Part shown: piece by piece, positions 44,115 to 61,946 of the stretch | Layout of the letters: every line of letters begins with the position of its first letter | How positions within the stretch are numbered: the first letter of the stretch is position 1 | Assembly: GCF_030408355.1 (NCBI RefSeq) | Contig: NZ_CP046606.1 | Coordinates: forward strand, 2,170,001-2,234,000 | Direction of reading: 5' to 3' | Length of the DNA: 64,000 nucleotides | DNA from: Corynebacterium afermentans subsp. afermentans | GTDB taxonomy: Bacteria; Actinomycetota; Actinomycetes; Mycobacteriales; Mycobacteriaceae | Translations under genes and position numbers: made by a program | Notes under the pieces: generated by a model | Databases searched by the model: none | Told to the model about the DNA's origin: nothing | What the model saw: only the letters and a program-made list of their open reading frames with translations

Positions 44115-45602
44115 ATGAACGAGACTGCGAAGCCGGTGCACTCCCGGCGCAGGTTTTCCCCCGCATGGCCGGTGAAGAACTTGCCTGCGGGTGCGGAGGC
44201 GCTCATCCCGGAGCTGGACAACCCCAGCTTTGAAGGCATCGAGGACCCCACGGACAACACTGAAAGCTTCACGCGCACGGAGCAGCCCGGTCAGCGAAGC
44301 ACCGCACCTGAGGCGGACCCGAAGCCGAAGGCGGTGTGGCGCTTCTTCCTCTACAGCGCCATCGGCATCTTCGCGTTTTTCGTGCCGTTTACCATCGGCG
44401 ATTCCAAATCCACGATCCTGCTGGACCACATTGTCAGCTGGATCACCACCACGCTCGGCGAGAACACCCGCTACCTGGCGTTGTTCGCCATCATCGCGGG
44501 CACGGTCTACCAGTTCGTCTCCGGGCGCTGGAAAGAGGATTACCCGCGCATGGCGTTCGCCGCGCTGTCGGTGCTGGCGATCGTGTTGTGCGCGATGCTC
44601 ACCTTCGGCTTCGGCCCGGCGTGGCTGTTCAACCCGGATATCGGCCCGTTCATCTTGGACAAGCTGGTCATCTCGGTTGGCCTGCTCATCCCGGTCGGCG
44701 CGATCTTCCTCGGTCTGCTGGTCGGCTTCGGCCTGATGGAGTTCATCGGCGTGATGGTGCAGCCGATCATGCGGCCGGTGTTCCGTACCCCGGGCAAGTC
44801 CGCGGTGGATGCGGTGGCGTCGTTTTTGGGCTCCTACTCGCTGGGCCTGCTGATTACGGACCGCATGTACAAAAACGGCAGCTACAACGGCCGCGAGGCG
44901 TCGATTGTGGCGTCGGGATTTTCCACCGTGTCCGCGACGTTCATGGTCATCGTGGCCAAGACGCTGGACATGATGGAGCACTGGACGGCGTACTTCTTCA
45001 TCACGTTCATCATCACCTTCATCGTCACCGCGATCGTGGTGCGCATCCCTCCCATCACCCGGATTCCAGAGGACTACTACCCGGGCGCCACCCCGCACCC
45101 GGAGAAAGAGATCGAGGGCAACCGTTTTAAGGCGGCGTGGCGCGAGGCGAAGATAGAGCTCAACCGCGCCGAGTCTTTGGGCAAGGTGCTGTGGGCGAAC
45201 TTCCGCGACGGGTTGATCATGGCCGTGCAGGTCACCCCGGGCATCATGGCCGTGGGCACAATCGGCCTGGTGCTGGCCACCTACACGCCAGTGTTCAAGA
45301 TTCTCGGCGTGGCGTTCTTCCCGGTGGTGTGGCTGCTGCGCCTGCCGGACCCGTGGGCGACCTCGGGCGCGCTGGCGTCGGGCCTGGCGGAGATGTTCCT
45401 GCCGGCCACACTGTCCGCAGGTTCGGACGACATGGTGCTGAAGTTCACCATGGCTGTGGTGTGCGTGAGCCAGATCTTCTTCTTCTCGGCGATGGTGCCG
45501 GCGGTGCTGGCCACCGACATCCCGCTGAGCATCTGGAAGATGGTGCAGATCTGGTTCATCCGCGTGGTGCTCACCGTGCTGATCACTGTGCCGGTGGCGC
45601 AC
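44115..45602 (+). CDS. YjiH-family permease 1
   Basis: A 499-residue integral membrane protein of the YjiH/nucleoside-recognition (Gate) type. After an ~75-residue hydrophilic N-terminus come about ten hydrophobic segments, with [20 protein letters not shown] and REASIVASGFSTVSATFMV, both conserved in the paralogue at 51552. Members are often linked to hut genes and are thought to carry histidine, urocanate or related compounds. It is convergent with hutG, 8 bp apart. The substrate is inferred from context only. Confidence 0.82.
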
Positions 45603-45610
45603 CTGATCTT

Positions 45611-46576
45611 CTAAAAAGCAGCTGCTTGTCCGCGCAGCTTCGCCCCGACAACCGCATCGTCAATCAGCCGCGCGGCAGCCTTGGCGGTGCGGTTGTCCAC
45701 GTCGAAGTCGGGGTTAAGCTCGACGACGTCGAGAAGCGCAACGCGCCCGGTGGACGCCACGGCCTCGACCATCGCGCGCAGCGTCGCGTACTCCACGCCG
45801 AAGCCGGCCGGGGCGGAAACGCCCGGCGCGACCGCCGCCGGCAGCACATCTAGGTCGATGGACAGGTGGATGGGCCGGTCGCCTTCCACCGCCGCGAGGG
45901 CACGCTCGGCGGCCTCACGCACGGTCATTGCCGCAAGCTCGGTGTCTAGGACGGTGGTCACGCCGAGTTCGTCGGCGGTGTCGAAGAGCACCTTGGTGTT
46001 GTTGGGCTTGGAGATACCGAAGACGCTGTAGTCGAAGTCCTCGCCCACCAGGCCGGCGATCTGCTTGAACGGGGTGCCGGAGGTGGGGCGGGTTTCGGTA
46101 CGCAGGTCGAAGTGAGCGTCGAAGTTGATCACCTGCATCGGCCCGATCGCCTCGTAGGCGCCGCGGTGGGTGGCAAACGAGGTTTCGTGCCCGCCGCCGA
46201 GCACGACCGTCATCCCGTCTGCGCCCTGCGCCGCCACGAGGTCGCGCACCCGGTCGGACAGCTCGCGCTGGGAGCCTTCGAGGTCGGTGTTTTGGGTGGT
46301 CACGGTGCCGGCGTCGAGAAGCGATGTGCTCTCGTGGACCGCGAGTGAGCCGAGCGCGGCGCGAAACGCCTCCGGGCCCTTCGCCGCGCCCTGGCGGCCG
46401 CCGTTGCGCTCGACGCCTTCGTCGGAGGCGTAGCCGATCAGGTGCGTCGCACCCTCAGTGGGCTGGGCGGTCGTGTCGATGACACTGTGCCAGCGGGCGT
46501 GCTCGGGGCCGGGGCCGTCGTTGCGGCCGGACCAGTTGGAAGCGGGGGTGAAAAGCGGTGCAGTTACGGTGTTCAT
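45611..46576 (-). CDS. hutG: Formimidoylglutamase (arginase/ureohydrolase family)
   Basis: Hydrolyses N-formimidoyl-glutamate to glutamate and formamide, the last hut step. The 321-residue enzyme has the binuclear Mn motifs: GGGHETSFATHRG, NFDAHFDLRTE, and SIDLDVLPAAVAPGVSAP. ATG 46576 is chosen because the N-terminus then matches the family and avoids an extension overlapping the divergent regulator. It is divergent from the IclR regulator (38 bp between starts) and convergent with the first YjiH gene. Confidence 0.93.
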   Translation of the reverse strand: MNTVTAPLFTPASNWSGRNDGPGPEHARWHSVIDTTAQPTEGATHLIGYASDEGVERNGGRQGAAKGPEAFRAALGSLAVHESTSLLDAGTVTTQNTDLEGSQRELSDRVRDLVAAQGADGMTVVLGGGHETSFATHRGAYEAIGPMQVINFDAHFDLRTETRPTSGTPFKQIAGLVGEDFDYSVFGISKPNNTKVLFDTADELGVTTVLDTELAAMTVREAAERALAAVEGDRPIHLSIDLDVLPAAVAPGVSAPAGFGVEYATLRAMVEAVASTGRVALLDVVELNPDFDVDNRTAKAAARLIDDAVVGAKLRGQAAAF

Positions 46577-46613
46577 GCCCTCCGAGGGTAGCGCCGCGGG
46601 CATACTAAGTGCG

Positions 46614-47348
46614 ATGACTAAGCCGCAGGTTCCCGCCGCGCACAATGTGTTGCGCATCCTGGCGCTGTTGTCCACCACGGACGCGCCGATTTCCGCCACC
46701 CGCATCCAGCGCGAGCTGGACCTGCCGCGTTCCACCACCTATCACCTGCTGCGGGAGCTGGAGGATTCCGGGTTTGTGGTGCACCTGCGCAAGCCCGGCA
46801 CGTACGGGCTGGGGCTGGCGTCGTACCGCATGGCGCAGGCGTACACCACGCAGCAGCCGCTGGTGCGGCTGGCCACGAAGCCGCTGGCGCGGATCGCCGA
46901 GCTCGCGGGCGGTTCGGCGCACTTGACGCGCCTCGCTGGTCCGGAGATTGTGTACTTGCACGAGGTGCGCGCCCCCGGTGCGGTGTCGCTGGTCACGGAG
47001 GTGGGCGTGCGTTTGCCGTCGTTGAAGACCGCCTCGGGGCGCATCATGCTTGCGCAGCTGCCGGAGGCGGAGCTGCGCGCCGCGTACAACTCCTCGGGCG
47101 AGCGCCGCCGCTACAGCGAGGTCAAAGAGGAGCTTTCTGCTTATCGACGCCAAGGGTTCGCCACCGAGCACGAAGCCATCTCGCGCGGCCAGGAGTCCGT
47201 GGCGGTGGCGGTGCTGGACCACCTTTCGCGCCCAGCGGCGGCGCTCGCGGTGACCTTCGCCGTGGGCAGCGCGGACACGCAACAGCTGGTCAGCGCGCTG
47301 CACACCGCCGCCGAGGGGCTGCGGGCACAGTTCTTCGGAAACGTGTGA
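46614..47348 (+). CDS. hutR: IclR-family regulator of histidine utilisation
   Basis: A 244-residue IclR-type regulator. The winged helix is at ~10-70 (VLRILALLSTTDAPISATRI and LPRSTTYHLLRELEDSGFV), followed by the effector domain with HEVRAPGAVSLVTEVG and KTASGRIMLAQL. ATG 46614 follows a TACTAA -10-like element at once, so the transcript may be leaderless. Position between hutG and hutH matches HutR of other corynebacteria, where it activates hut genes; the effector is probably urocanate or histidine. Confidence 0.9.
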   Translation: MTKPQVPAAHNVLRILALLSTTDAPISATRIQRELDLPRSTTYHLLRELEDSGFVVHLRKPGTYGLGLASYRMAQAYTTQQPLVRLATKPLARIAELAGGSAHLTRLAGPEIVYLHEVRAPGAVSLVTEVGVRLPSLKTASGRIMLAQLPEAELRAAYNSSGERRRYSEVKEELSAYRRQGFATEHEAISRGQESVAVAVLDHLSRPAAALAVTFAVGSADTQQLVSALHTAAEGLRAQFFGNV

Positions 47349-47381
47349 TCGGACACACTTTTTTAGGCTACTATCACGTCC

Positions 47382-48923
47382 ATGACGCACACAGTTTCAG
47401 TTGGAATTGGGGCCCTGTCCATCGAGGACGTTGTGGCCGTCGCCCGCCACGGAGCCGAGGTCGCCATCGACCCGACGGCCCTTGATGAGATCGCCGCGAC
47501 CCGCAAGCGCGTCGAAGAGCTCGCCGCGGATCCCACCCCGGTCTACGGCGTCTCCACCGGTTTCGGCGCACTGGCTACCAAACACATCCCGGAGGACATG
47601 CGCGCCCAGCTGCAAGTCTCCTTGGTCCGCTCCCACGCTGCGGGTACCGGTCCTGAGGTGGAAGAAGAGGTCATCCGCGCGCTGATGCTGCTGCGCCTGT
47701 CCACGCTGTGCACCGGCCGCACCGGCGTGCGCCCCGTGGTCGCAGAAACCTACGCCGCCGCGCTCAACGCCGGCATCACCCCGGTGGTGCGCGAGTACGG
47801 CTCACTCGGCTGCTCCGGCGACCTGGCGCCGTTGGCGCACTGCGCGCTGGCGCTGCTCGGCGAGGGCGAAGTCCGCGTGCGCGGCGGCAAGATCGTCCCG
47901 GCGGCTGAGGCGCTTTCGGCTGCCGGCATCGAGCCGCTGGTGCTGCGTGAAAAGGAGGGCCTGGCGCTGATCAACGGCACCGACGGCATGCTCGGCATGC
48001 TGTGCCTGGCCATCGCGGATCTGCGCGAGGCCGCCAAGGTCTCCGACATCGCCACCGCCATGAGCGTCGAGGGCCTGACAGGCACCCTGTCCGTCTTCGA
48101 CGAGGACTTGCAGGAGCTGCGCCCCCACCCTGGCCAGGCGGATTCCGCCTACAACATCCGCACCGTCGCCGCCGGCTCGCCGATCCTCGACGCAGCCCTG
48201 GACGGCTTCAAGACCAACGAGGTCCAAGACGCCTACTCCATCCGCTGCACCCCACAGGTCGCCGGCGGTTTCCGCGACACGCTGGCCCACGTCACCACCG
48301 TTGCGAACCGCGAGCTCGCCGCCGCCAACGACAACCCCGTGGTGGCCAAGGACGGCCGCGTGGCCTCCAACGGCAACTTCCACGGCGCGCCTGTGGCTTA
48401 CGTGTTGGACTTTTTGGCGATTGTGGTGGCGGACTTGGCGTCGATTAGCGAACGGCGCACCGACCGCTTCCTCGACCCCGCCCGCAACCGCGGCCTCAAC
48501 GCCTTCCTCGCCGGCGACCCGGGTGTGGACTCCGGCCACATGATCGCGCAGTACGCGCAAGCCGGCATCGTCGGCGAGCTCAAGCGCAACGCCGTGCCCG
48601 CCTCCGCCGACTCGATCCCGTCCTCGGCGATGCAAGAAGACCACGTCTCTTTGGGCTGGTCCGCCGGGCGCAAGCTGCGCCGCAGCATCGACGGCCTGCA
48701 GCGCGTGCTCGCCGTGGAGATCCTCACCGCCGCCCGCGCGCTGGACATGCGCGACGGCGAGTCCTCCGCCGGCACTGGCGCGGCAGTGTCCGTGCTGCGC
48801 AAGCGTGTCGACGGCCCCGGCACCGACCGTTACCTCTCCCCCGAAATCGAGCACTCCGTGCAGCTAGTCAAGGGCGGCGACTACGTCGAGGCCGTCGAAG
48901 CCGCGGTGGGCCAGCTGCGGTAG
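47382..48923 (+). CDS. hutH: Histidine ammonia-lyase
   Basis: Deaminates histidine to urocanate. The 513-residue protein has normal length. The MIO cofactor triad is Cys-Ser-Gly in GSLGCSGDLAPLAHCALALL near residue 145, where most bacteria have Ala-Ser-Gly; actinobacterial enzymes often show Cys. Other landmarks are YGVSTGFGALA near 47-58, GTDGMLGML and SIRCTPQVAGGFRDTL. It lies 33 bp after hutR. The operator-like element found before hutU is not visible upstream of hutH. Confidence 0.97.
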   Translation: MTHTVSVGIGALSIEDVVAVARHGAEVAIDPTALDEIAATRKRVEELAADPTPVYGVSTGFGALATKHIPEDMRAQLQVSLVRSHAAGTGPEVEEEVIRALMLLRLSTLCTGRTGVRPVVAETYAAALNAGITPVVREYGSLGCSGDLAPLAHCALALLGEGEVRVRGGKIVPAAEALSAAGIEPLVLREKEGLALINGTDGMLGMLCLAIADLREAAKVSDIATAMSVEGLTGTLSVFDEDLQELRPHPGQADSAYNIRTVAAGSPILDAALDGFKTNEVQDAYSIRCTPQVAGGFRDTLAHVTTVANRELAAANDNPVVAKDGRVASNGNFHGAPVAYVLDFLAIVVADLASISERRTDRFLDPARNRGLNAFLAGDPGVDSGHMIAQYAQAGIVGELKRNAVPASADSIPSSAMQEDHVSLGWSAGRKLRRSIDGLQRVLAVEILTAARALDMRDGESSAGTGAAVSVLRKRVDGPGTDRYLSPEIEHSVQLVKGGDYVEAVEAAVGQLR

Positions 48924-48970
48924 GAGGTTTTGGTCCCGGCTTTCAGCCCTGCCCCCCCCCCTTTTCCCAC

Positions 48971-49039
48971 AAACCCTGGGATCAAAAGCCTGGCAACGTG
49001 CCGATTTTTGCCGTTCCCTGGGTGTGGCTCCCAGGGTTT
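48971..49039. repeat. Interrupted inverted repeat downstream of hutH
   Basis: AAACCCTGGGA (48971-48981) and its exact complement TCCCAGGGTTT (49029-49039) are 47 bp apart in the 288-bp gap between hutH and the acyl-CoA dehydrogenase gene. The inner sequence has further partial CTGG and TTGCC repeats. It may end the hutH transcript as a long-range hairpin. A C9 homopolymer lies just before it (48952-48961 region). Confidence 0.5.
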
Positions 49040-49102
49040 GCTGCTTTGCCCAGAGGAGCAAAAGGTGCCGTGCAACTTTGGCTGCCTCCACCCTGTGCGC
49101 GA

Positions 49103-49118
49103 GTCTTGTATCCAAGAC
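49103..49118. promoter_or_regulatory. Operator-like 16-mer upstream of the acyl-CoA dehydrogenase operon
   Basis: GTCTTGTATCCAAGAC is a dyad (7-bp arms with an imperfect centre) 94 bp before the acyl-CoA dehydrogenase ATG. The related GTCTCGCATACGAGAC stands before hutU. Together they define GTCTyGyATmCrAGAC. The inner 14-mer has the same TCT..AT..AGA architecture as the HutR motif I recall from C. resistens (TCTGwwATwCCAGA) with different flanking bases. Confidence 0.6.
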
Positions 49119-49211
49119 AACTCCCGCCGGAAGCCAGATGTGACCTCCAAAAACCTCCATACACTGTCGCGCACACCATAGTTTCGCGTCGATTGTGATT
49201 GGAGTCTCATC

Positions 49212-50378
49212 ATGGCTGGACGGTACCCGAACGGCGATTTCTACGATTTTGAGTCCGAGCTGCCCGCGGAGGAAAAGGAGATCCTCCACAACGTCCGCGA
49301 GTGGGCGACGGAGAAAGTGTTGCCCATCGCCGTGGACTACTGGAACCGATCGGAGTTCCCGCACGAGCTGCTGCCGTCGATAGGCGAGCTGAACATCATC
49401 AGTCTCGTGCGCGGCCAGGGCCGCTCCCGTCTGCTAGCCGGCCTGGTTGCGGCGGAGATCCACCGCGCGGACGGCTCCGTGGGCACGTTCTTCTCCGGCC
49501 AGGACGGCCTGTTCACCGGCAGCATCGAGCTGCTTGGCTCCGAGGAGCAGAAGGAGCGCTGGCTGCCGGACCTGTACGCGGTGCGCAAAACCGGCGTGCT
49601 GGCAATCACCGAGCCGGAGGCCGGTTCCGACGTCGCACAGGGCATGCGCACCACCGCCACCAAGGTCGACGGCGGCTGGATCCTCAACGGCGCAAAGCGC
49701 TGGATCGGCAACGCCACCTTCTCCGACTACGTCGCCGTCTACGCCCGCGACCCGGAGGACGATCAGGTCAAGGGCTTCATCGTGGACACTTCCGCGGAGG
49801 GCTACACCGCCACGCTGATGGAAAACCGCATCGCCATCCGCGCGGTGCAAAACGCCGACATCACCCTGGACAACGTCTTCGTCCCAGACAGCGACAAGCT
49901 CGAGGGCGCGAACTCGTTCAAAGACATCAACAAGGTGTTCAAGAGCGCACGATCCACGGTGGGCTGGCAGGCCGTCGGCACGCAGATGGGCGCCCTTGAC
50001 GTCGCGCTCGGCTACGCGGACGAGCGCATCCAGTTTGGCAAGAAGATCTCCTCATTCCAGCTCAACCAGAACAAGCTGGCCACGATGCAGGGCAACCTGG
50101 TCGCCTCCGAATCCATGATGGCGCAGCTCGCCCGCATGGAGGACCGCGGCTCCGCCAACAACGAGCAGTCCGCGCTGGCCAAGGGGTTCACCTCGAAACT
50201 CATGCGTGAAACGGTCGCGCTCGGCCGCGAGATCCTGGGCGGCAACGGTCTGATCTCGGACTACCGCATGGCCAAGATCTTCAACGACGCGGAGGCGATC
50301 TACTCCTACGAGGGCACCTACGACATCAACCAGCTCATCGTCGGCCGCTCCATCACGGGCGAGTCGGCGTTCGTGTAG
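49212..50378 (+). CDS. Acyl-CoA dehydrogenase (glutaryl-CoA dehydrogenase-like)
   Basis: FAD-dependent acyl-CoA dehydrogenase of 388 residues. FAD and substrate motifs are VLAITEPEAGSDVAQGMRTT near 132-151 and WIGNATFSDYVAVYA. The catalytic Glu is in the C-terminal AIYSYEGTYDINQLIVGR near residue 362, the position used by glutaryl- and short-chain acyl-CoA dehydrogenases. It is first in a three-gene operon with a type III CoA-transferase (21-bp gap) and a YjiH permease, placed inside the hut cluster. Substrate is unknown; imidazolepropionyl-CoA and glutaryl-CoA are the candidates discussed in the findings. Confidence 0.9.
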   Translation: MAGRYPNGDFYDFESELPAEEKEILHNVREWATEKVLPIAVDYWNRSEFPHELLPSIGELNIISLVRGQGRSRLLAGLVAAEIHRADGSVGTFFSGQDGLFTGSIELLGSEEQKERWLPDLYAVRKTGVLAITEPEAGSDVAQGMRTTATKVDGGWILNGAKRWIGNATFSDYVAVYARDPEDDQVKGFIVDTSAEGYTATLMENRIAIRAVQNADITLDNVFVPDSDKLEGANSFKDINKVFKSARSTVGWQAVGTQMGALDVALGYADERIQFGKKISSFQLNQNKLATMQGNLVASESMMAQLARMEDRGSANNEQSALAKGFTSKLMRETVALGREILGGNGLISDYRMAKIFNDAEAIYSYEGTYDINQLIVGRSITGESAFV

Positions 50379-50399
50379 TTCGGGTTAGGAGGAAACACC

Positions 50400-51530
50400 A
50401 TGAATGCACCACTTTCCGGCATCCGCGTCCTCGATCTATCCCGAGTGCTCGCGGGCCCGTTCTGCTCCATGATCCTGGCGGATCTCGGCGCCGAGGTGAT
50501 CAAGGTGGAATCGCCCTGGGGCGATGATTCGCGCCAGTTCGGCCCGTTCGTGGACGGCACGTCCGCCTACTACCGCCTGTTCAACCGCTCGAAGATGGGC
50601 ATCACGCTGGACTTCAAAAACGACGACGACAAGGAGGTGCTGCGTGACCTGGTCCGCCGCGCCGACGTGGTCGTGGAGAATTTCCGCCCGGGCGTGTTGG
50701 AGAAGCTCGGTTTGGGCCCGGAGGGACTGTTGGAGGTCAACCCTCGGCTCGTCGTCACGAGCATCTCCGGCTTCGGTCAGACCGGATCTTTGTCCAAGGA
50801 ACCGGCGTACGACCTGGTCGCCCAGGCGATGAGCGGCCTCATGTCCATCACCGGCTGGCCCAACGGCAAGCCGACGCGCGTCGGCATCTCCCTGGGCGAC
50901 CTGATCCCAGGCCTCTACGCCGCCATCGGCACCGTCTCCGCGCTCTACCACCGCGAATCCACCGGCCGCGGCCAGCATCTGGATCTGGCTATGTACGACT
51001 CGCTTATCTCCGTCATGGAGTCCGTGGGCATGCGCGCGCTTTACGACGACGTCCCGCCCACCCGCATCGGCAACGACCACGGCCTCTCCGCGCCGTTTTC
51101 CACGTATGCGACCAAGGACGGCGACGTGGTCATCGCGATCACCACGAACCGGCTGTTCGAGCGCCTGGCAAACGCGCTGGACATCCCGGAGATGGCCACC
51201 GACCACCGCTTTGCCGAACCGGTGGCCCGCTCCGAGAACCGCGTCGCGCTGCGCGAACTCATCGAAGAAGCGCTGAGCACCAAAACCCGCGCCGAGACGA
51301 TCGCGCTGTTTGAAGAGCACGGCGTGCCCACCGCCCGCGTCTACCACCTGGACGAGACGCTGCGCAGCCCGTTCGCGGAAGAACGCGGCGTGGTGGTGGA
51401 AGAAACGGATGGGTTCCGCACCCTCGCGTCCCCGCTCAAGCTGGCCGGCATGGAAGGGCCAAAGCCGGCGCCGGAGCTGGGGCAACACAACGACCGCATC
51501 GAGTCTTGGCTGAGCGAAGACCCGCGCTAA
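50400..51530 (+). CDS. Type III CoA-transferase (CaiB/BaiF family)
   Basis: A 376-residue CoA-transferase moving CoA between carboxylic acids. It begins PLSGIRVLDLSRVLAGPFCS with LADLGAEVIKVE and the conserved RSKMGITLDFKNDDDKEVL, VENFRPGVLEKLGLG and SGFGQTGSL. The catalytic Asp is in GQHLDLAMYDSLISVM. A strong GGAGGA precedes the ATG. It lies between an acyl-CoA dehydrogenase and a YjiH permease, so it probably activates the imported acid for the dehydrogenase. Confidence 0.92.
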   Translation: MNAPLSGIRVLDLSRVLAGPFCSMILADLGAEVIKVESPWGDDSRQFGPFVDGTSAYYRLFNRSKMGITLDFKNDDDKEVLRDLVRRADVVVENFRPGVLEKLGLGPEGLLEVNPRLVVTSISGFGQTGSLSKEPAYDLVAQAMSGLMSITGWPNGKPTRVGISLGDLIPGLYAAIGTVSALYHRESTGRGQHLDLAMYDSLISVMESVGMRALYDDVPPTRIGNDHGLSAPFSTYATKDGDVVIAITTNRLFERLANALDIPEMATDHRFAEPVARSENRVALRELIEEALSTKTRAETIALFEEHGVPTARVYHLDETLRSPFAEERGVVVEETDGFRTLASPLKLAGMEGPKPAPELGQHNDRIESWLSEDPR

Positions 51531-51551
51531 GTTCCGCGAAGGAGCAGCACC

Positions 51552-52949
51552 ATGGAGGACCCCCTCAACACCCGCCGCGGCGGAAGCACCCGTTGGATCA
51601 AAGGCGAAAGCATCGCCCCTGTGCCCTCAATGCCCGAGCCGCACGAGGCAGACCGCACCGACCCGAAGCAGAAGTGGCGCTTCTTCGTCTACAGCGCCAT
51701 CGGCTCGTTCGCATTCTTCGTGCCTTTCACAGTGGGCGAGAAGAACACGATTTTGCTGGACCACATCGTGGGCTGGCTGCAAGAAGGGCTCAGCGCCGCG
51801 CTGCCGTACATCACACTGGTGATGATCACCGCCGGCGCCGTCTACCAGTTTGCCACCGGCAAGTGGCGCGAGGATCGGGCGCGCGCGGTGTTCGCCTTCC
51901 TCTCCGCGTTGGCCGTGCTGCTGTGCGCGATGCTGGTGTTCGGCTTCGGTCCGGCATTTCTTTTCGACGAACGCCTCGGCCCCTTCATCCTGAACAAGCT
52001 GGTCATCCCCGTCGGCCTGCTTATCCCGGTGGGCGCGATCTTCCTCGGCCTACTGGTCGGCTTCGGCCTGATGGAGTTCATCGGCGTGCTGGTGCAGCGC
52101 TTCATGCGGCCCGTCTACCACACGCCGGGCAAATCCGCGGTGGACGCAGTGGCGTCGTTTCTGGGCTCGTACTCGCTGGGCCTTTTGATTACTAACCGCG
52201 TCTACCGCACCGGCGGCTACACCGCCCGCGAAGCGTCCATCATCGCGGCCGGGTTCTCCACCGCCTCGGCAACGTTCATGGTTGTTGTCGCCCGCACCCT
52301 GGACCTAATGCACATCTGGGGCGTGTACTTCGCCGTGACGTTGATCGTCTGCTTCCTGGTCACCATCGTCGTGGTGCGCATCCCACCGCTTTCCACCATC
52401 CCGGACGACTACTACCCCGGCGTCACCCCGCAACCCGAGGAGCAGGTGGAAGGCAACGTGTTCGCCGCCGCGTGGAAGGAAGCGATGGCGTTTCTCGCGC
52501 AGGCCGACTCGCTGCCGAAAACGCTGTGGCGCAACTTCAAAGATGGCGTGATCATGACCATCCAGGTCATCCCCGGCATCATGGCCGTGGGCATCATCGG
52601 CCTGGCGCTGGCGTTCTACACCCCGGCCTTCAAGATCCTCGGCGCGGTGTTCTACCCGCTCGCCCTACTGTTCCAGCTGCCCGACCCGTGGCTGGCCTCT
52701 GAGGCATTCGCCATCGGCCTGTCCGAGCTGTTCCTGCCGGCAACACTGGTATCCGGCAACGAGTCGGAAGTGCTGCGCTTCACCGTCGGAGTGGTCTCCA
52801 TCAGCCAGGTGTTCTTCTTCTCCTCGATGATCCCGGCGGTGCTCGCCACGGACATCCCGCTGAAGATCAACCACATGGTGATCATCTGGTTCCAGCGCGT
52901 AGTGCTGTCGATCATCCTGACGGTGCCGATCGCGTACCTGATCTTCTAG
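51552..52949 (+). CDS. YjiH-family permease 2
   Basis: A 465-residue membrane protein, clearly paralogous to the product of 44115-45602: [20 protein letters not shown] is identical, and [20 protein letters not shown] and the C-terminal segment are close. The hydrophilic N-terminus is shorter (~40 residues). It is the third gene of the acyl-CoA dehydrogenase/CoA-transferase operon, 21 bp after the transferase, so it is probably the importer of that pathway's substrate. A hairpin with 28-bp perfect arms follows. Confidence 0.82.
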
Positions 52950-52965
52950 CGCCTGGTGCTTCAGA

Positions 52966-53028
52966 CCCTGAGCAAGCGATCCAGAGCATGCCCCAATTCC
53001 GGGCATGCTCTGGATCGCTTGCTCAGGG
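52966..53028 (+). terminator. Hairpin with perfect 28-bp arms after YjiH permease 2
   Basis: Arms 52966-52993 and 53001-53028 are exact complements over 28 bp with a 7-nt loop (CAATTCC). The left arm starts CCCTGAGCAAGCG. One more A-T pair is possible outside. It sits 17 bp after the stop and ahead of hutU, so termination of the upstream operon is likely; arms this long are unusual for a plain intrinsic terminator and only a short TTT follows. Confidence 0.75.
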
Positions 53029-53061
53029 TTTGTGCGCGAGCACGGGCCCCTCCCTCAAAAA

Positions 53062-53077
53062 GTCTCGCATACGAGAC
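53062..53077. promoter_or_regulatory. Operator-like 16-mer upstream of hutU
   Basis: GTCTCGCATACGAGAC is a dyad 91 bp before the hutU ATG. It shares 12 of 16 positions with the element at 49103-49118, and both lie ~91-94 bp from the start codon of the gene they precede. A common regulator of the two operons is likely. Confidence 0.6.
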
Positions 53078-53167
53078 AAATGGCCCTACGCCACCCTCCG
53101 CGCATCCTGTGACGAGCGTTACTGTTTATCCGATACCTCGATTGGGCAACAACAGAAAGGAATTCCC

Positions 53168-54859
<1,692 letters not shown>

Positions 54860-54871
54860 CCCCTTACTCAT

Positions 54872-54909
54872 GCGCTGACGTTTCCCCTCGTGGGCGCGTC
54901 AGCGCTTTT
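54872..54909 (+). terminator. Hairpin with T tail between hutU and hutI
   Basis: GCGCTGACG and CGTCAGCGC form a 9-bp stem around a 16-nt loop followed by TTTT. It is a partial or attenuating intrinsic terminator inside the hutU-hutI unit; hutI starts 43 bp further on with its own AGAAAGG site. Confidence 0.65.
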
Positions 54910-54951
54910 CATTACCCTGGGCCCTGCAAACCCTCGAAGAAAGGCACACTC

Positions 54952-56145
54952 ATGAGCACCTTCATCACCGGTATTTCCGAGCTGCGCACCGTCTCAGAGC
55001 TCGGCACCATCAAAGACGCCGCAATGCTTATCGACGACGGCGTGGTCACCTGGGTCGGCCCCGCCAACGAGGCGCCAGCTGAGGCGGCGAAGGCGGCGGA
55101 AACTGTAGACGTCGAGAAGCGAGCTGTGCTCCCTGGCTGGGTGGATTCCCACACGCACATGGTCTTCGACGGCAACCGCGCCGAGGAGTTCGAGGCGCGC
55201 ATGGCCGGCGAAGGCTACGCCGCCGGCGGCATCGCCGTGACCATGGAAGCCACCCGCTCCGCGGGCGAGGAGCGCCTGGACAAACTGGTGGCGGAGCGCA
55301 TCGCCGCGGCGCAGGCGCTGGGCACCACCACCTTTGAAACCAAGACCGGCTACGGCCTCAACGTCGAATCCGAGGCCGAGGCCGCGCGCGTGGCAGCCCG
55401 CCACGTCGACGAAGTCACCTTCCTCGGCGCCCACCTCGTGCCGCCGGGGGCGGACGCCGACGAGTACCTCGACGAGGTCGTCGGCCCGATGCTCGACGCG
55501 GTAAAGGACCACGTGCAGTGGATCGACGTGTTCTGCGAGCGCGGCGCGTTCAACGAGGAGCAGTCCCGCCGCGTCCTCGAGGCCGGCAAGGCCGCTGGCC
55601 TGGGCGTTCGCGTGCACGGCAACCAGCTCGGCGAAGGCCCCGGCGTGAAGCTCGCCGTGGAGACGGGTGCCGCCAGCGTCGACCACGTGAACTACCTGTC
55701 CGACGAAGACATCAAGCTGCTGGCCGAGTCGGAGACCGTCGCGACGCTGCTGCCCGCCTGCGACCTGTCCACCCGCGAGGAGCTCGCCCCGGGCCGCAAG
55801 CTCATCGACGCCGGCGCAACCGTCGCCATCGCCTCCAACCTGAACCCGGGCACCTCGTACACCTCCTCGATGAACTTCTGCGTCACCACCGCGGTGCTGC
55901 AGCAGCGCCTCACCCTCGACGAGGCCATCGAGGCTGCCACCACCGGCGGCGCGAAGGCATTGCGACGCCACAACGTCGGCGACGGCAAGGACCCCCAAGG
56001 CCGACCGGCGAAGGGCACCCTCGTGCCCGGCGCGGCCGCCGACCTGCACATCCTCGACGCCGAGAACGCCATCAACCTGGCGTACCGCCCGGGCATGCCG
56101 ATCACCTGGCAGACCTGGGTCGCAGGCCAAAAGGTCTACGGCTAG
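54952..56145 (+). CDS. hutI: Imidazolonepropionase
   Basis: Zn/Fe-dependent amidohydrolase opening imidazolonepropionate to N-formimidoyl-glutamate. At 397 residues it has normal length. Metal ligands are in DSHTHMVFDGNRAEEFEARM near 64-83; TFETKTGYGLNVESE follows, then VHGNQLGEGPGVKLAVETGA, SVDHVNYL and ASNLNPGTSYTSSM. AGAAAGG precedes ATG 54952. Its product is the substrate of HutG encoded at 45611-46576. Confidence 0.96.
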   Translation: MSTFITGISELRTVSELGTIKDAAMLIDDGVVTWVGPANEAPAEAAKAAETVDVEKRAVLPGWVDSHTHMVFDGNRAEEFEARMAGEGYAAGGIAVTMEATRSAGEERLDKLVAERIAAAQALGTTTFETKTGYGLNVESEAEAARVAARHVDEVTFLGAHLVPPGADADEYLDEVVGPMLDAVKDHVQWIDVFCERGAFNEEQSRRVLEAGKAAGLGVRVHGNQLGEGPGVKLAVETGAASVDHVNYLSDEDIKLLAESETVATLLPACDLSTREELAPGRKLIDAGATVAIASNLNPGTSYTSSMNFCVTTAVLQQRLTLDEAIEAATTGGAKALRRHNVGDGKDPQGRPAKGTLVPGAAADLHILDAENAINLAYRPGMPITWQTWVAGQKVYG

Positions 56146-56197
56146 GCGCCCGGCCCCCGCGTCCCAGCGCCCGCGTCCCAGCGCCCCAAATTCGCGG

Positions 56198-56262
56198 ATC
56201 CAGCTAGTAAGACCCAGCTATTCGCCGAAAATCAGCGAATAGCTGGGTCTTACTAGCTGGAT
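56198..56262. terminator. Hairpin with perfect 28-bp arms between hutI and ugpC
   Basis: Arms 56198-56225 and 56235-56262 are exact complements over 28 bp with a 9-nt loop (CGAAAATCA). The left arm starts ATCCAGCTAGTAAG. It lies between convergent hutI and ugpC and could terminate both. Its size and perfection match the hairpin at 52966-53028, though the sequence differs. Just before it, CGCGTCCCAGCGCCC is directly repeated. Confidence 0.7.
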
Positions 56263-56297
56263 TTGGCCGTTAGCCCGCGCCCGAAACCGGCCGAGCG

Positions 56298-57428
56298 TTA
56301 AAGGTAGTCGTAGTTGATCTCGGTCTCCGGGTCGAAGAACACCACGCCACCTTCCATTGGGCGCAGGTAGATGGTGTCGCCGTGGTTGACTTCGATGCCG
56401 CGTGGAACCTTGACCGTGATGCGGTCGCCACGCACCGCGATGACGTTGTCGGCCGTTTCCCGGCGGTGCCCGTAGACGTAAAGATCGGAGCCGAGGTGCT
56501 CCACAATGTCGACCTCAACCGGCAACCCGTAATGCTCACCCGGCTGATTCACGCCGACGATCTCCCAGTTCTCCGGGCGCACACCGACGATCACGCGATC
56601 GGACTCCACTTTGGCGGCAAGCTCACGCGTAATGAAATAGTCCAGCGCGTGGCCCTTGCCGCCGACGACGTGACCGTCGATGAACGGCACGTTGTCAATC
56701 AACGTCATCGCCGGCGAACCGATAAACGATGCGACGAACGTGTTGCCCGGGTTGTTGTACAGGTTCGCCGGGGTATCAACCTGCTGAATGATGCCTTTCT
56801 TCAGCACGCAAACCCGATCACCCATGGTCATTGCCTCGGTCTGATCGTGAGTGACGTAGACCGTGGTGGTGCGCAACTTGCGTTGCAGCTGCAGAATCTG
56901 CGCGCGGGTGGACACACGCAGCTTGGCGTCCAGGTTGGACAGCGGTTCGTCCATGAGGAACACCTTCGGCTCACGCACGATTGCCCGCCCCATGGCCACG
57001 CGCTGCCGCTGACCACCGGACATCGCCGCAGGCTTTTTGTCCAGGAGATCCTCGAGCTCCAGCATCTTCGCCGCGAAGTCCACCCGTTCCTTGATGGTCG
57101 CTTTATCCGCCTTGGCGTTTTCCAACGCGAACGCCATATTCTGGCGCGCCGTCATATTTGGATAGAGAGCGTAAGACTGGAACACCATGGCGACGTCGCG
57201 GTCACGCGGACGCGTTTCCGTCACGTCCTCGCCGTCGATGAAGATCTGCCCTTCATCTACCGGCTCCAACCCTGCGAGCATACGCAGCGTCGTCGACTTG
57301 CCGCAGCCGGACGGACCGACCAGAACGAGGAACTCACCGTCGGCGATGTCCAGACTGATGCGGCTGACCGCAGGCGGGCGCGACGGATCGTAGATACGGG
57401 ACGCTTGGCTGAACTCAACGGTTGCCAT
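56298..57428 (-). CDS. ugpC: Glycerol-phosphate ABC transporter ATPase
   Basis: ATP-binding subunit of 376 residues. Walker A is GPSGCGKST near 37-45, Q-loop region QSYALYPNMTARQNMAF, signature MSGGQRQRVAMGRAIV near 134-149 and Walker B VFLMDEPLSNLD, then the switch His in YVTHDQTEAMTMGD. A C-terminal TOBE/regulatory domain follows. It is the last gene of a minus-strand ugpA-E-B-C operon, 33 bp after ugpB. Assignment to glycerol-phosphate rather than another sugar rests on gene order and the nearby glpQ genes. Confidence 0.88.
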   Translation of the reverse strand: MATVEFSQASRIYDPSRPPAVSRISLDIADGEFLVLVGPSGCGKSTTLRMLAGLEPVDEGQIFIDGEDVTETRPRDRDVAMVFQSYALYPNMTARQNMAFALENAKADKATIKERVDFAAKMLELEDLLDKKPAAMSGGQRQRVAMGRAIVREPKVFLMDEPLSNLDAKLRVSTRAQILQLQRKLRTTTVYVTHDQTEAMTMGDRVCVLKKGIIQQVDTPANLYNNPGNTFVASFIGSPAMTLIDNVPFIDGHVVGGKGHALDYFITRELAAKVESDRVIVGVRPENWEIVGVNQPGEHYGLPVEVDIVEHLGSDLYVYGHRRETADNVIAVRGDRITVKVPRGIEVNHGDTIYLRPMEGGVVFFDPETEINYDYL

Positions 57429-57461
57429 GGGCGGCTCCTTCTTTCGCTCGAGCCTGGAAGG

Positions 57462-58784
57462 CTACTTGTCCAGCTTCGGGGTGATGTCGCGGTCGATAAC
57501 CTGCTGGGTTTCCTTGTCCAGGTCCGCGAAGACCTTCTCCACGTCCTGGCCGCCAACGGTGATTTTGTCCAGTGCACCACCAATGCGCTTGCCGCCGCCC
57601 GGCACAAACACGCGCGCGAAGTCCTGCGGCTTGGTGTTTTCGTTGAGCTGCTTAATGGCAGTCTCCGCGTTCGGGTTCTCATCCAGGAACTTGCGCTCCT
57701 CCGGGTTGTCCAGTGCGTCCTTACGCACCGGCATGTAGCCGGTCTTCTGAGAGAACATGATGGTGTTCTCGGTGTTGGTGATGAAGTCGATGAACTTCAC
57801 GGCGTTCTTCTTGCGCGCGTCCGAGATGCCGTTCGGAACAGCCAGGCCAGCACCGCCCGTAGCCGCGGACGGGCCGGGCCCCGGCAGGTAGGTGGTGATA
57901 AACGGCACCGTTGCGGACTCCTTCAGACCACCCAGCGAGCCGGTGGATTCAAGCAGTCCAGAGACGTTGCCGTTGCCGAATGCCACGGTCGGGTCGGTAC
58001 CGATCTCGATGTGGCCCTTGTTCACCTGATCCTGCAGAAACTTCGCAGCCTCGATGGTCTTTGGATCCGAGAACTTCGGCTCCCACTCGTTGGAGTAGCC
58101 GCCACCGAAGGCCCAGACCATGCCCTGGAAGTACCAGTCCAGGTAGCTGGAACCGTCCGGGATGGTCAGCGCCGGCTTACCCGTCTTCTCTGTGAGCTTG
58201 GCTGCCCACGCGTCGAACTCCTGCCAGGTCTCAGGACCGCGGTCCGTGGGCAGACCAGCGGCAGCCAGGTCGTCGGTGTTCCAGTACATCAGGTTGGTCG
58301 AGCGGGAGTACGGGACACCGTAGTGCTTGCCCTCATAGAGGTAATCGTCGCGCAGGGTGTCCACGTAGGACTCGTAATTGATGTCCTCGGACTCCCACAG
58401 ATCGTTCAGCGGGGTGGTGGCATCGTTCAGGGCGAAGTTGAACCAGGTCACGTCGGAGGCGACAATGACGTCCGGCAGGTCCGAGCCAGCAAGCGCAGCG
58501 TTGAACTTTTGCGCCAGCTCTTCGTAGCTCGCGCCGCCGTCGACAAGCTCGACGCTCAGATCCGGGTTTTCCTTCTCAAACGCCTCGATGAGTTCCAGCT
58601 CGAGGTCGCGGGAGTTACCCGGGTGGTTAGACCAGAAGACGATCTTGTTCTCGTCGCCGCCGTTACCGCCGCCGGTGTTACCGCCGTCGCTGGTGGAGCC
58701 ACCTGCGCAAGCAGTCAGGGAAACAGCGGTGAGGGCAGCCAGGGCAGCAGCACCGAGACGTTTGGTCAGTGAGTTGTTAGACAT
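57462..58784 (-). CDS. ugpB: Glycerol-phosphate ABC transporter substrate-binding lipoprotein
   Basis: Extracytoplasmic binding protein of 440 residues. ATG 58784 is chosen because GGAGAT precedes it and the signal peptide (lipobox LTAC near residue 28) follows. The linker GGSTSDGGNTGGGNGG leads into a type 1 solute-binding fold with ENKIVFWSNHPGNSRDLELE at its start, typical of UgpB. The surrounding ugpA, ugpE and ugpC genes and two glpQ genes support sn-glycerol 3-phosphate or glycerophosphodiesters as substrate. Confidence 0.88.
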   Translation of the reverse strand: MSNNSLTKRLGAAALAALTAVSLTACAGGSTSDGGNTGGGNGGDENKIVFWSNHPGNSRDLELELIEAFEKENPDLSVELVDGGASYEELAQKFNAALAGSDLPDVIVASDVTWFNFALNDATTPLNDLWESEDINYESYVDTLRDDYLYEGKHYGVPYSRSTNLMYWNTDDLAAAGLPTDRGPETWQEFDAWAAKLTEKTGKPALTIPDGSSYLDWYFQGMVWAFGGGYSNEWEPKFSDPKTIEAAKFLQDQVNKGHIEIGTDPTVAFGNGNVSGLLESTGSLGGLKESATVPFITTYLPGPGPSAATGGAGLAVPNGISDARKKNAVKFIDFITNTENTIMFSQKTGYMPVRKDALDNPEERKFLDENPNAETAIKQLNENTKPQDFARVFVPGGGKRIGGALDKITVGGQDVEKVFADLDKETQQVIDRDITPKLDK

Positions 58785-58823
58785 GGGAATCTCCATTCTT
58801 GGATTGGTATAGGGAGTTTGTAG

Positions 58824-59819
58824 TTAGCCCTTGACGGCACCCGCAGTCAGGCCCTTGATCATCTGTTTTTGCAAAAAGAGGAACACGATAATCATGGGCA
58901 AAGTGGTCAACACGGTGCCGGCCATGACGGGCGCCCAGTTGGTCAGACCCTCTGCATCCTGCAGTCGGGTCAGGCCCACTGGCAGTGTCGCCGCAGCCGG
59001 GGTGTCCGTGATGAGGAACGGCCAGAGGTACTGGTTCCATTCGTTAACCACAGTTATCAGCAGGAACGCCGACAAGGTCGGCCAGGACATGGGCAAGACA
59101 ACCTTGAACAGCTTCGCGAAAAAGCCGGCGCCGTCCATCTCCGCTGCTTCCAAGATTTCGACCGGAAGCGATTGGAAGTGGTTGCGCATGAGGAAGCAGC
59201 CGAAAGCCACACCTGCCAGAGGCACGATCACACCGGTCCAGGTATCGCGCCACCCCAGGGATGCGGCGAGCGAGTAGTTGGAAATGATGGTGATCTGGTT
59301 GGGCACCATCAATGCCGCGATTACCAGAAGAAAAAGCAAGTTCCTCCCCGGGAAGCGAAGGAACGCGAAGGCGTACGCAGACAACACACCGAGCACCACC
59401 TCGATCACGGTGAGGATGAGCGTGATGCCGATGGAGTTACGCAGGTACTGCGGGAAACCGGACGTTTCCCACACACGCGCGTAGTTCTCCGGGACAATCG
59501 GTTCCGGCCAGAACGAAATCGGATCCGAGTACACGTCCTGATAGGTCTTGAACGAAGTGATCACGATGAAGTACAGCGGAACCAGAATCATCAGCACCGT
59601 GAGCACGAGCGCGATGTAGCCGAGGACTTTCATGCCCTTCGAGCTGGTCTCCGCAGGTGCTTCTTTACGATTGCGCTGAGCATCGGTGATCACCGGCTCG
59701 CCCGACGCTTGGCTTCCCGGCACAGGCGGCAGCGAATCCTCGTCCCGCACGACCGCTGCCGGGATCTGTGACACCGGTTTTGTGGCCTTGCCTGAATCAG
59801 CTGAGAATTTTGTCGACAT
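58824..59819 (-). CDS. ugpE: Glycerol-phosphate ABC transporter permease
   Basis: Membrane permease of 331 residues with an unusually long hydrophilic N-terminus (~65 residues) followed by six hydrophobic helices. The cytoplasmic EAA loop is EILEAAEMDGAGFFAKLFKV, with VVLPMSWPTLSAF after it, as in MalG/UgpE proteins. It starts directly after the ugpA stop and precedes ugpB by 39 bp in the ugpAEBC operon. Confidence 0.9.
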   Translation of the reverse strand: MSTKFSADSGKATKPVSQIPAAVVRDEDSLPPVPGSQASGEPVITDAQRNRKEAPAETSSKGMKVLGYIALVLTVLMILVPLYFIVITSFKTYQDVYSDPISFWPEPIVPENYARVWETSGFPQYLRNSIGITLILTVIEVVLGVLSAYAFAFLRFPGRNLLFLLVIAALMVPNQITIISNYSLAASLGWRDTWTGVIVPLAGVAFGCFLMRNHFQSLPVEILEAAEMDGAGFFAKLFKVVLPMSWPTLSAFLLITVVNEWNQYLWPFLITDTPAAATLPVGLTRLQDAEGLTNWAPVMAGTVLTTLPMIIVFLFLQKQMIKGLTAGAVKG

Positions 59820-60773
59820 TTACTTGTCCAACCTTTCCTGCAGCTTGATCTGGAGCACAGTGATAACCAGGACAATCAGGAACATGATCGTGGCCACGGC
59901 AGCGCCGTAGCCCGCGCGTCCGTTGACGAAGGTCTCGGTATACACCTGGAAAACCATCGTCGTGGTGCCGTAAGTGAACGGGCCGCCCCTGGTCATCGCA
60001 TTGATGATGTCGAAGACCTGGAAGGAGCTGAGCAGCACGGTGATCAGGAGAAAGAACGTGGTGCCGCGCAGCTGCGGCAGCACGACGCGGAAGAAGTGGC
60101 GGGACGATGACGTGCCGTCGATCTCGGCTGCCTCGTCCAGGTCGCGGCGACGCCCCTGCAGGGCGGCAAGGTAGATGACGAAGACGTAACCGACGTTTTT
60201 CCAGATGTAAGTCACCGTGATCATGAACAAGGCCCAGCCGGAGTTTTGGTAGAAATTCGGCACCGGGATGTTCATCAGGTTGAGGAAGTACTGGATGAGC
60301 CCGTACCGCGGGTCGAATACAAACTGGAACGCCACACCGATCGCAGCGCCTGCGATGACGTACGGGGCAAAGACCATCGATCGTACTGCAGCGCGGCCGA
60401 AAAGTTTCTGGTCCAACAGGACTGCAAGCACAAGTCCGATCACCATCGACCCAGCGACAGCGAAGAGAGTGAAGATGAGGGTGTTCCAAACGATGGTCTT
60501 GGTTTCCGGGGCTTGGAACCAATCGATGTAGTTCTGTAGCCCTACCCACGTCATCGTTGGCGAGGAAATGTTCCAGTTGTAGAACGAAATTCGAATGTTA
60601 TCTACCAACGGACGGTAGGTGAACAGGATGAGCAGCAGCAGGTTCGGGCCAATCAGCAAAGTGGCCAGCCCTACCTGGCGCCAGTCAACTTTCCGTCGTC
60701 CCCTCCCGCGGGATGCCGCGTACTCTTCGGAGACTTCAGGCTCCACGGAGACAGCCGGAATCGTCGCATTCAT
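59820..60773 (-). CDS. ugpA: Glycerol-phosphate ABC transporter permease
   Basis: Membrane permease of about 317 residues (ATG 60773 preferred over 60782), with six hydrophobic helices. The EAA loop is seen as RDLDEAAEIDGTSSSRHFFR and VVLPQLRGTTFFLL, as in MalF/UgpA proteins. It is first in the ugpAEBC operon, so promoter elements are expected just upstream, where a CTTAAAG direct repeat with 11-bp period is found. The ribosome binding site is weak. Confidence 0.9.
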   Translation of the reverse strand: MNATIPAVSVEPEVSEEYAASRGRGRRKVDWRQVGLATLLIGPNLLLLILFTYRPLVDNIRISFYNWNISSPTMTWVGLQNYIDWFQAPETKTIVWNTLIFTLFAVAGSMVIGLVLAVLLDQKLFGRAAVRSMVFAPYVIAGAAIGVAFQFVFDPRYGLIQYFLNLMNIPVPNFYQNSGWALFMITVTYIWKNVGYVFVIYLAALQGRRRDLDEAAEIDGTSSSRHFFRVVLPQLRGTTFFLLITVLLSSFQVFDIINAMTRGGPFTYGTTTMVFQVYTETFVNGRAGYGAAVATIMFLIVLVITVLQIKLQERLDK

Positions 60774-60812
60774 GCAGAGCACCGTAAGCTCTGCTGATGA
60801 ACGAACAGTAAA

Positions 60813-60830: not shown

Positions 60831-60942
60831 AAAACGTTGATCGAACGGATCGTGCTCGTAAAAAATTCTATGTCGCGGGGCAACGTCATATGTTCGCACC
60901 ATTTTCATGCCAGCATTTCTGAGTGGCGTGTGAAAACGACGG

Positions 60943-60974: not shown

Positions 60975-60985
60975 GGATCTCCTCG

Positions 60986-61909: not shown

Positions 61910-61946
61910 GGGCGCAAATCTACAGCACACCCATGTCCGCCAAGGC

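What the first reader, a model, noticed from the sequence alone, without database searches (positions are those of the whole stretch)
49103..56145. Possible imidazolepropionate-to-urocanate side route built into the hut cluster
Between hutH and hutU lie an acyl-CoA dehydrogenase, a CaiB/BaiF CoA-transferase and a second YjiH permease in one operon. None is needed for histidine breakdown. Together they could import imidazolepropionate (dihydrourocanate), load CoA onto it, dehydrogenate it to urocanyl-CoA, and let the transferase pass CoA to the next acid, releasing urocanate for HutU, HutI and HutG. The shared operator-like element precedes exactly this operon and hutUI, not hutH, as expected for a urocanate-level module. 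The alternative is glutarate use (glutarate CoA-transferase plus glutaryl-CoA dehydrogenase), since the dehydrogenase looks glutaryl-CoA-like. Enzyme families are seen in the sequence; the pathway is inference.
Basis: partly seen in the sequence, partly recalled or inferred. Interest (0 to 1): 0.85.

Follow-up and report, generated by a model that had tools for sequence, protein, structure and literature searches.

The report
Imidazolepropionate-to-urocanate module in Corynebacterium hut cluster
Some corynebacteria carry three extra genes, apparently controlled together with part of their histidine-breakdown genes, that probably import imidazole propionate (a diabetes-linked gut metabolite) and turn it into urocanate for use as food; no bench test has been done yet.

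Summary
Between hutH and hutU lie an acyl-CoA dehydrogenase, a CaiB-type CoA-transferase and a second YjiH-type permease in one operon, with a HutR-type operator before it and before hutU, not before hutH. The transferase occurs in 21 of 242 Corynebacterium genomes, always just downstream of the dehydrogenase; all 21 have hutU. The trio lies near hut genes in 18 of 21, in six layouts; in the other three it still carries the operator. The dehydrogenase has Gly where glutaryl-CoA dehydrogenase has its carboxylate-binding arginine (21 of 21). In one genome an NCS1-family permease takes the YjiH place. This speaks against glutarate and for an acid entering at urocanate; imidazolepropionate is the best candidate: CoA transfer, dehydrogenation to urocanyl-CoA, CoA handed on, urocanate to HutU. 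Link to the urocanate pathway: about 0.95. Exact substrate and oxidative direction: about 0.6, no biochemistry. Rivals: the reverse reaction, another arylpropionate or cis-urocanate, a general short-acid module, glutarate.

The parts
49103..49118 (.). HutR-type operator, 109 bp (start to start) before acd
   Evidence: GTCTTGTATCCAAGAC; frame found upstream of acd in 19 of 21 trio genomes; consensus from passage in PMC8222616
49212..50378 (+). acd: acyl-CoA dehydrogenase, 388 aa; Gly91 at the place of glutaryl-CoA dehydrogenase Arg94; Glu367 catalytic base by alignment
50400..51530 (+). caiB: type III (CaiB/BaiF) CoA-transferase, 376 aa, Asp167 conserved
   Evidence: PF02515
51552..52949 (+). 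yjiH2: YjiH-type permease with Gate domain (PF07670), 465 aa
53062..53077 (.). HutR-type operator before hutU
   Evidence: GTCTCGCATACGAGAC; frame upstream of hutU in 12 of 13
53168..54859 (+). hutU: urocanate hydratase (start inferred at 53168)
   Evidence: TIGR01228, 885 bits, cut-off 375
54952..56145 (+). hutI: imidazolonepropionase
   Evidence: TIGR01224, 328 bits, cut-off 298
47382..48923 (+). hutH: histidine ammonia-lyase (context)
   Evidence: TIGR01225, 607 bits, cut-off 539
46614..47348 (+). hutR: IclR-type regulator (context; start inferred)
   Evidence: IclR-family hits below equivalog cut-offs; position and family match corynebacterial HutR (PMC3350403)
45611..46738 (-). hutG: formimidoylglutamase (context; start uncertain, ORF overlaps hutR start)
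   Evidence: TIGR01227, 257 bits, cut-off 229
44115..45614 (+). yjiH1: first YjiH-type permease (context), 67% identical to yjiH2
   Evidence: PF07670

Best explanation
The three genes are a urocanate-level entry module of the hut pathway, built like the carnitine cai module (transporter + acyl-CoA dehydrogenase + type III CoA-transferase). YjiH2 imports imidazolepropionate (dihydrourocanate). The CaiB-type transferase loads CoA onto it, at first from a cell CoA donor and then from the product. The dehydrogenase makes urocanyl-CoA and passes electrons to ETF. The transferase moves CoA from urocanyl-CoA to the next imidazolepropionate and releases urocanate for HutU, HutI and HutG, giving glutamate and formamide. 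HutR controls the operon together with hutUI. Shown here: gene families, operon, HutR-type operator, co-occurrence, conserved non-glutaryl residues, one genome without hutH, an ETF gene in the genome. Inferred: substrate, direction, CoA donor, HutR binding in these species, transporter specificity.
For: hutU in 21 of 21 trio genomes (11, 10); in the 151-genome sample 61 have hutU and the 11 dehydrogenase-ortholog genomes are all among them (hypergeometric P 2.6e-5, not corrected for kinship). Trio in one 20-kb stretch with hut genes in 18 of 21, six layouts. HutR-type element before acd in 19 of 21, including the three unlinked trios (G031, G592, G053), and before hutH in 0 of 15. G048 (99% complete, one contig): hutG<>hutR-hutU-acd-caiB-yjiH2-hutI, no hutH match, no aromatic-lyase match, one YjiH, the trio's. 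Gly at the Arg94 position, 21 of 21 (role of Arg94 from passages of PMC3169403). In G576 an NCS1-family permease (PF02133) stands in the place of yjiH2; that NCS1 proteins carry N-heterocycles is recalled. YjiH genes lie close to hutU in G061 and G129, which have no hutH match and no trio. ETF alpha in 40 of 40 genomes tested. The two Leucobacter genomes with the same enzyme pair keep it with 2-hydroxyacid-oxidase families, a HisC-like aminotransferase and a HAL-like lyase, a set that fits aryl or imidazole C3 acids.
Against: No biochemistry. In 3 of 21 genomes the trio is not near hut genes. 20 of 21 keep an ammonia-lyase gene, so one genome alone shows independence from it, and imported urocanate would suffice to explain HutU there. 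Of the three sampled genomes with hutU over its cut-off and no hutH match (G048, G061, G129), two lack the trio. The HutR-type elements mostly differ from the published strict consensus (median 4 mismatches, reached by 5% of shuffles). ETF is in every genome tested and does not discriminate. The Leucobacter pair is not beside hutUI and may act on phenyl or indole acids. The dehydrogenase's best solved relative is a short-chain acyl-CoA oxidase (ACX4). What YjiH proteins carry is unknown.
Confidence: 0.6

Rival explanations
1. Reverse direction: the same enzymes reduce urocanate to imidazolepropionate as an electron sink, through CoA esters (as CaiA/CaiB and FldA/AcdA systems do, recalled), with YjiH2 as exchanger.
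For: Acyl-CoA dehydrogenase plus type III CoA-transferase plus transporter is also the outfit of reductive systems (recalled); NCBIfam lists acryloyl-CoA reductase as second hit, 199 bits against a cut-off of 640; gene content does not fix direction.
Against: Shared control and, in G048 and G627, shared operon with hutUI, which consume urocanate; corynebacteria respire with ETF and oxygen (recalled; only ETF alpha was tested).
Confidence: 0.15
2. Another acid at the urocanate level: a methylated or other arylpropionate, or cis-urocanate turned to trans by reduction and re-oxidation as CoA ester.
For: The Leucobacter relatives sit with families that fit several aryl C3 acids; cis-urocanate is common on sunlit skin (recalled).
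Against: HutU would have to accept the product; HutU here is over the standard hutU cut-off and below those of thiourocanate and S-methyl-thiourocanate hydratases; no isomerase of this kind is known to me.
Confidence: 0.12
3. A general short-chain acid module (for example butyrate-like) that happens to be under HutR control.
For: Nearest solved structure is short-chain acyl-CoA oxidase ACX4 and best NCBIfam hit is staphylococcal FadE, 398 bits against a cut-off of 600; lone relatives in Micrococcaceae sit near rpsB/tsf-like genes (named by eye).
Against: Acyl-segment residues differ from the lone enzymes; hut linkage in 18 of 21 and the HutR-type element in the rest.
Confidence: 0.08
4. Glutarate use: glutarate CoA-transferase plus glutaryl-CoA dehydrogenase.
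For: Both families are distant relatives of SUGCT and glutaryl-CoA dehydrogenase.
Against: Arg94 replaced by Gly in 21 of 21; 150 bits against a cut-off of 470 for glutaryl-CoA dehydrogenase Acd and 313 against 750 for succinate--glutarate CoA-transferase; co-control and linkage with hutU.
Confidence: 0.04

Closest known systems
Carnitine cai module of E. coli (CaiT, CaiA, CaiB; recalled)
   Same: Transporter, acyl-CoA dehydrogenase family enzyme and type III CoA-transferase in one operon; CoA passed from product to substrate
   Different: Weak sequence match (crotonobetainyl-CoA dehydrogenase model 136 bits of 540, carnitine CoA-transferase 128 of 413); other transporter family; tied to hut genes; proposed to run oxidatively
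Corynebacterial hut cluster (hutR, hutG, hutH, hutU, hutI; PMC3350403, section 8 read)
   Same: Same four enzymes and IclR-type HutR
   Different: Carries three more genes between hutH and hutU; the paper's text mentions unnamed additional genes in some clusters but not what they are
UrdA urocanate reductase (imidazolepropionate formation; PMC13320830, passages)
   Same: Same pair of metabolites
   Different: No CoA esters, opposite direction, unrelated enzyme (last point recalled)
Imidazolylpropionate breakdown by Pseudomonas testosteroni (Coote and Hassall 1973; recalled, not read)
   Same: Imidazolepropionate to urocanate to hut pathway
   Different: Activity only, genes unknown to me; other phylum
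Glutaryl-CoA dehydrogenase / glutarate CoA-transferase pair
   Same: Same two superfamilies
   Different: Lacks the carboxylate-binding arginine; far below model cut-offs

Membership tests
Histidine utilization (hut) pathway / HutR regulon | hutH, hutU, hutI, hutG present in the cluster | tested here: met
   All four over their NCBIfam cut-offs
Histidine utilization (hut) pathway / HutR regulon | HutR-type operator before the trio operon | tested here: met
   Frame <=1 mismatch before acd in 19 of 21; other two lie behind hutU. Strict published consensus mostly not matched
Histidine utilization (hut) pathway / HutR regulon | HutR binds the site | not testable with these tools
   Needs gel shift or reporter
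Acyl-CoA dehydrogenase family | N-terminal, middle and C-terminal domains over Pfam cut-offs | tested here: met
   PF02771, PF02770, PF00441
Glutaryl-CoA dehydrogenase | Arginine binding the far carboxylate (human Arg94) | tested here: not met
   Gly91 in 21 of 21
Glutaryl-CoA dehydrogenase | NCBIfam GlutCoADH_Des over cut-off | tested here: not met
   150 of 470 bits
Type III CoA-transferase family | PF02515 over cut-off and conserved catalytic Asp | tested here: met
   412 bits of 23.3; Asp167 21 of 21 (its catalytic role is recalled)
Succinate--glutarate CoA-transferase | NCBIfam SucGlutTfsCaiB over cut-off | tested here: not met
   313 of 750 bits
Carnitine cai module | CaiA and CaiB models over cut-off | tested here: not met
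   136 of 540 and 128 of 413 bits; claim is only that it works like one
Imidazolepropionate-to-urocanate pathway | Enzyme activity on imidazolepropionate / its CoA ester | not testable with these tools
   No assay available

The most novel reading that the evidence does not exclude
The trio is a dedicated CoA-dependent imidazolepropionate catabolic module, the first gene set for removing a diabetes-associated metabolite that a 2025 review calls non-metabolizable (PMC11872695, passage seen); it is carried by several Corynebacterium species and, in G048, is an entry to the hut pathway in a genome without histidine ammonia-lyase.
Probability: 0.55. Interest if true: 0.85.

Novelty: new variant of a known kind. 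Interest (0 to 1): 0.72.

Why it matters
Imidazole propionate is made from histidine by gut bacteria and associated with cardiometabolic disease (abstract start of PMC13320830, passages; PMC11872695 title and passages). UrdA, the enzyme that makes it, is known. In five searches of the held library I saw no paper that names genes for its breakdown (listings only, and one search showed 30 of 64 papers). If right, this gives a gene set, a candidate regulator (HutR) and candidate organisms for consuming it, all directly testable with a handful of enzyme assays and deletions.

Tried and rejected
Glutarate use: rejected as main reading (Gly at the Arg94 position in 21 of 21; 150 of 470 and 313 of 750 bits). 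Published HutR consensus as a plain search pattern: nothing above chance in the window (8 sites, 6.8 expected), and the strict 16-base form gives a median of 4 mismatches before acd, reached by 5% of shuffles; 8 of 21 have 3 or fewer, reached by 0.5%. The looser frame used was written after seeing the window's sites and the published consensus, so only the other 20 genomes test it, and many of these are close kin. ETF as a marker: in 40 of 40 genomes, no use. Class-wide search for the transferase: 1 of 394, the window's own genome. Of the 80 loci, 6 are Corynebacterium and 1 Leucobacter; the other 73 are dehydrogenases with no caiB or hut match in the stretch held (some stretches are cut by contig ends). 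The G576 NCS1 permease: found in none of the other 39 genomes searched, and no solved relative at E 0.001. Hairpin between yjiH2 and hutU: its arm occurs by exact match only in three loci of the window's own genome out of 205 loci, so not a conserved part. Promoter scan: no sigma-70-like site in 46500-56400. Literature: five searches on imidazolepropionate breakdown and one on urocanate transporters gave no gene-level report; Coote and Hassall 1973 is recalled, not found. Papers seen: passages of PMC2830990, PMC3350403 (plus its section 8), PMC13320830, PMC8222616, PMC3169403, PMC8871633, PMC12188710, PMC11872695; none read whole.
Full report
What is there. The window lies in a genome of 2.375 Mb. 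It is a Corynebacterium: loci of named Corynebacterium records match genomes of its own genus (for example the C. glaucum contig of 2,518,659 bases equals G566). On the + strand hutR-hutH is followed by an acyl-CoA dehydrogenase (acd), a type III CoA-transferase (caiB), a YjiH-type permease with Gate domain (yjiH2), then hutU and hutI; hutG, a first yjiH and an AGCS-type carrier lie upstream. yjiH1 and yjiH2 are 67% identical in protein and 70-83% alike in DNA over the longest blocks.

Distribution. The transferase ortholog (61% identity or more, E <= 1e-100) is in 21 of the 242 genus genomes searched, and in all 21 the dehydrogenase lies directly upstream, 16-151 bp away. In a 151-genome sample the dehydrogenase ortholog (68% or more) is in 11 genomes, and a paralog of 41-47% identity in others. 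In the class 1 of 394 genomes has the transferase at E <= 1e-115, the window's own. In the genus of Leucobacter sp. 7(1) it is in 2 of 54.

Link to the hut pathway. All 21 trio genomes have hutU (11, 10), against 61 of 151 in the sample; P 2.6e-5 for the 11, not corrected for shared descent. In 18 of 21 the trio lies in the same stretch of up to 20 kb as hut genes, in six layouts: hutH-trio-hutUI (9 genomes, two of them cut by contig ends and one, G576, with another permease), trio then agcS-hutG-hutR-hutH (2), divergent from hutR (3), hutU-trio-hutI (2), hutG<>trio-hutR (1), and a looser one in G037 (1). Keeping the link through such rearrangement points to shared function. In 3 of 21 (G031, whose contig equals one of C. 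propinquum, its near twin G592, and G053) the trio lies apart.

Regulation. The published HutR consensus of C. resistens, GTCTGWWATWCCAGAC, was seen in a passage of PMC8222616; the primary paper was not read. The window's two elements share its palindromic frame, not its letters. With the frame GTCTNNNATNCNAGAC and at most one mismatch in the 250 bp upstream, acd scores in 19 of 21 (16 of them without mismatch; 14 of the 19 start 106-109 bp before the gene), hutU in 12 of 13, hutH in 0 of 15, hutI in 0 of 13, caiB in 0 of 21, hutR in 4 of 17, hutG in 2 of 17, yjiH1 in 2 of 11, agcS in 1 of 10; shuffled acd upstream regions score in 0.3% (genes outside the stretch, under 45% identity or with under 120 bp upstream were dropped). 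All three unlinked trios have the element. The two acd without it, in G627 and G048, lie behind hutU, whose upstream region carries it (G048 without mismatch, G627 with two, so G627 is the one hutU miss). Against this: with the strict consensus the acd elements have 0 to 7 mismatches, median 4, and 4 is reached by 5% of shuffles; and the frame was chosen after seeing the window.

The genome without histidine ammonia-lyase. G048 (99% complete, one contig) reads hutG<>hutR-hutU-acd-caiB-yjiH2-hutI. It has no hutH match and no aromatic-lyase match. G627 has the same order with hutH between hutR and hutU. G048's only YjiH at E <= 1e-40 is the trio's. So in G048 something other than its own histidine deamination feeds HutU, and the trio sits in that operon. 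Imported urocanate could be that something, as it may be in G061 and G129, which have hutU, hutI and a YjiH close by, no hutH match and no trio. The other trio genomes, 20 of 21, keep an ammonia-lyase gene.

The enzymes. The dehydrogenase keeps the catalytic Glu (E367, 21 of 21). Its best solved relative is Arabidopsis ACX4 (349 bits), ahead of glutaryl-CoA dehydrogenases (219 bits and less). The arginine that binds glutarate's far carboxylate (human Arg94; passages of PMC3169403) aligns with Gly91 in 21 of 21. On the same segment His84, Val90, Gly91, Ser95 and Gly96 are shared with the one transferase-linked Leucobacter enzyme compared and differ from seven lone relatives. In the tree of 55 sequences the trio enzymes form one clade (100/100), the two Leucobacter enzymes are its sister (100/95), then 17 lone enzymes, 16 from Micrococcaceae and one from a record labelled Acidobacteria. 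The transferase's best solved relatives are YfdE and other CoA-transferases; no NCBIfam model reaches its cut-off; Asp167 is invariant.

Transporter swap. In G576 no yjiH2 was found; its place holds a permease of PF02133 (NCS1 type) beside an ISL3-family transposase. None of the other 39 genomes searched has that permease at E <= 1e-50. NCS1 proteins are recalled to carry nucleobases, hydantoins and allantoin, so the swap hints at an N-heterocyclic substrate.

Leucobacter. Both genomes carry a GlcD-like oxidase, acd, caiB, an IclR, an FMN-dependent dehydrogenase and a HisC-like aminotransferase in a row, with an amino-acid ABC binding protein, a P450 and a HAL-like lyase nearby. The lyase scores 529 bits on one HAL model (cut-off 524) and 502 on another (cut-off 539) and has an ASG triad. 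This fits salvage of aryl- or imidazole-lactates and -propionates; it does not say which ring, and the pair is not beside hutUI.

How it most likely works. Imidazolepropionate is imported, loaded with CoA by the transferase, dehydrogenated to urocanyl-CoA with ETF as acceptor, and released as urocanate while CoA passes to the next molecule; HutU, HutI and HutG then give glutamate and formamide. It works like the carnitine module (CaiT, CaiA, CaiB) and the FldA/AcdA pair of Clostridium sporogenes (both recalled), but is not a member: CaiA and CaiB models are far below cut-off. Shown: genes, operon, operator, co-occurrence, residues. Inferred: substrate, direction, CoA donor, transport, HutR binding.

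Rivals. The same enzymes run backwards, making imidazolepropionate from urocanate: not excluded by gene content; co-control and co-operon with hutUI favour use. Another arylpropionate, or cis-urocanate turned to trans through the reduced CoA ester. A general short-acid module. Glutarate, contradicted above.

Known or new. UrdA makes imidazolepropionate (PMC13320830, passages). A 2025 review calls it non-metabolizable (PMC11872695, passage). Growth of Pseudomonas testosteroni on imidazolylpropionate through urocanate is recalled from 1973 literature. Five searches of the held library showed no report of genes for its breakdown (listings only). The parts are known families in a known kind of arrangement, so I file it as a new variant of a known kind.

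Noticed in passing
window 52963-53032: A long, nearly perfect hairpin (31 pairs, -71.6 kcal/mol, z -13.5) between yjiH2 and hutU. Its arm occurs by exact match only in loci of the window's own genome (3 of 205 loci).
   Followed up: partly
L069 305-15861; L201 6465-18842 with L204 2484-4292: Two Leucobacter genomes share an island of HAL-like lyase, ABC binding protein, P450, GlcD-like oxidase, acyl-CoA dehydrogenase, CaiB-type transferase, IclR, FMN-dependent dehydrogenase and HisC-like aminotransferase; possibly salvage of aryl or imidazole C3 acids.
   Followed up: partly
L164 10668-13679: In G576 an NCS1-type permease next to an ISL3-family transposase stands in the place of the trio's YjiH permease.
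   Followed up: yes
L044 and L045: G061 and G129 have hutU and hutI with a YjiH gene close by but no hutH match, which suggests that YjiH proteins carry urocanate.
   Followed up: partly
L047 7872-9399: In G144 hutH is in two pieces; not examined further.
   Followed up: no
window 56298-63460: Minus-strand ORFs downstream of hutI look like an ABC uptake system (ATPase, binding protein, two permeases) and two glycerophosphodiesterase-like proteins; named by eye, no family search.
   Followed up: no
L159 11962-13653: In G578 a transposase-like ORF (named by eye) lies between yjiH2 and hutU.
   Followed up: no
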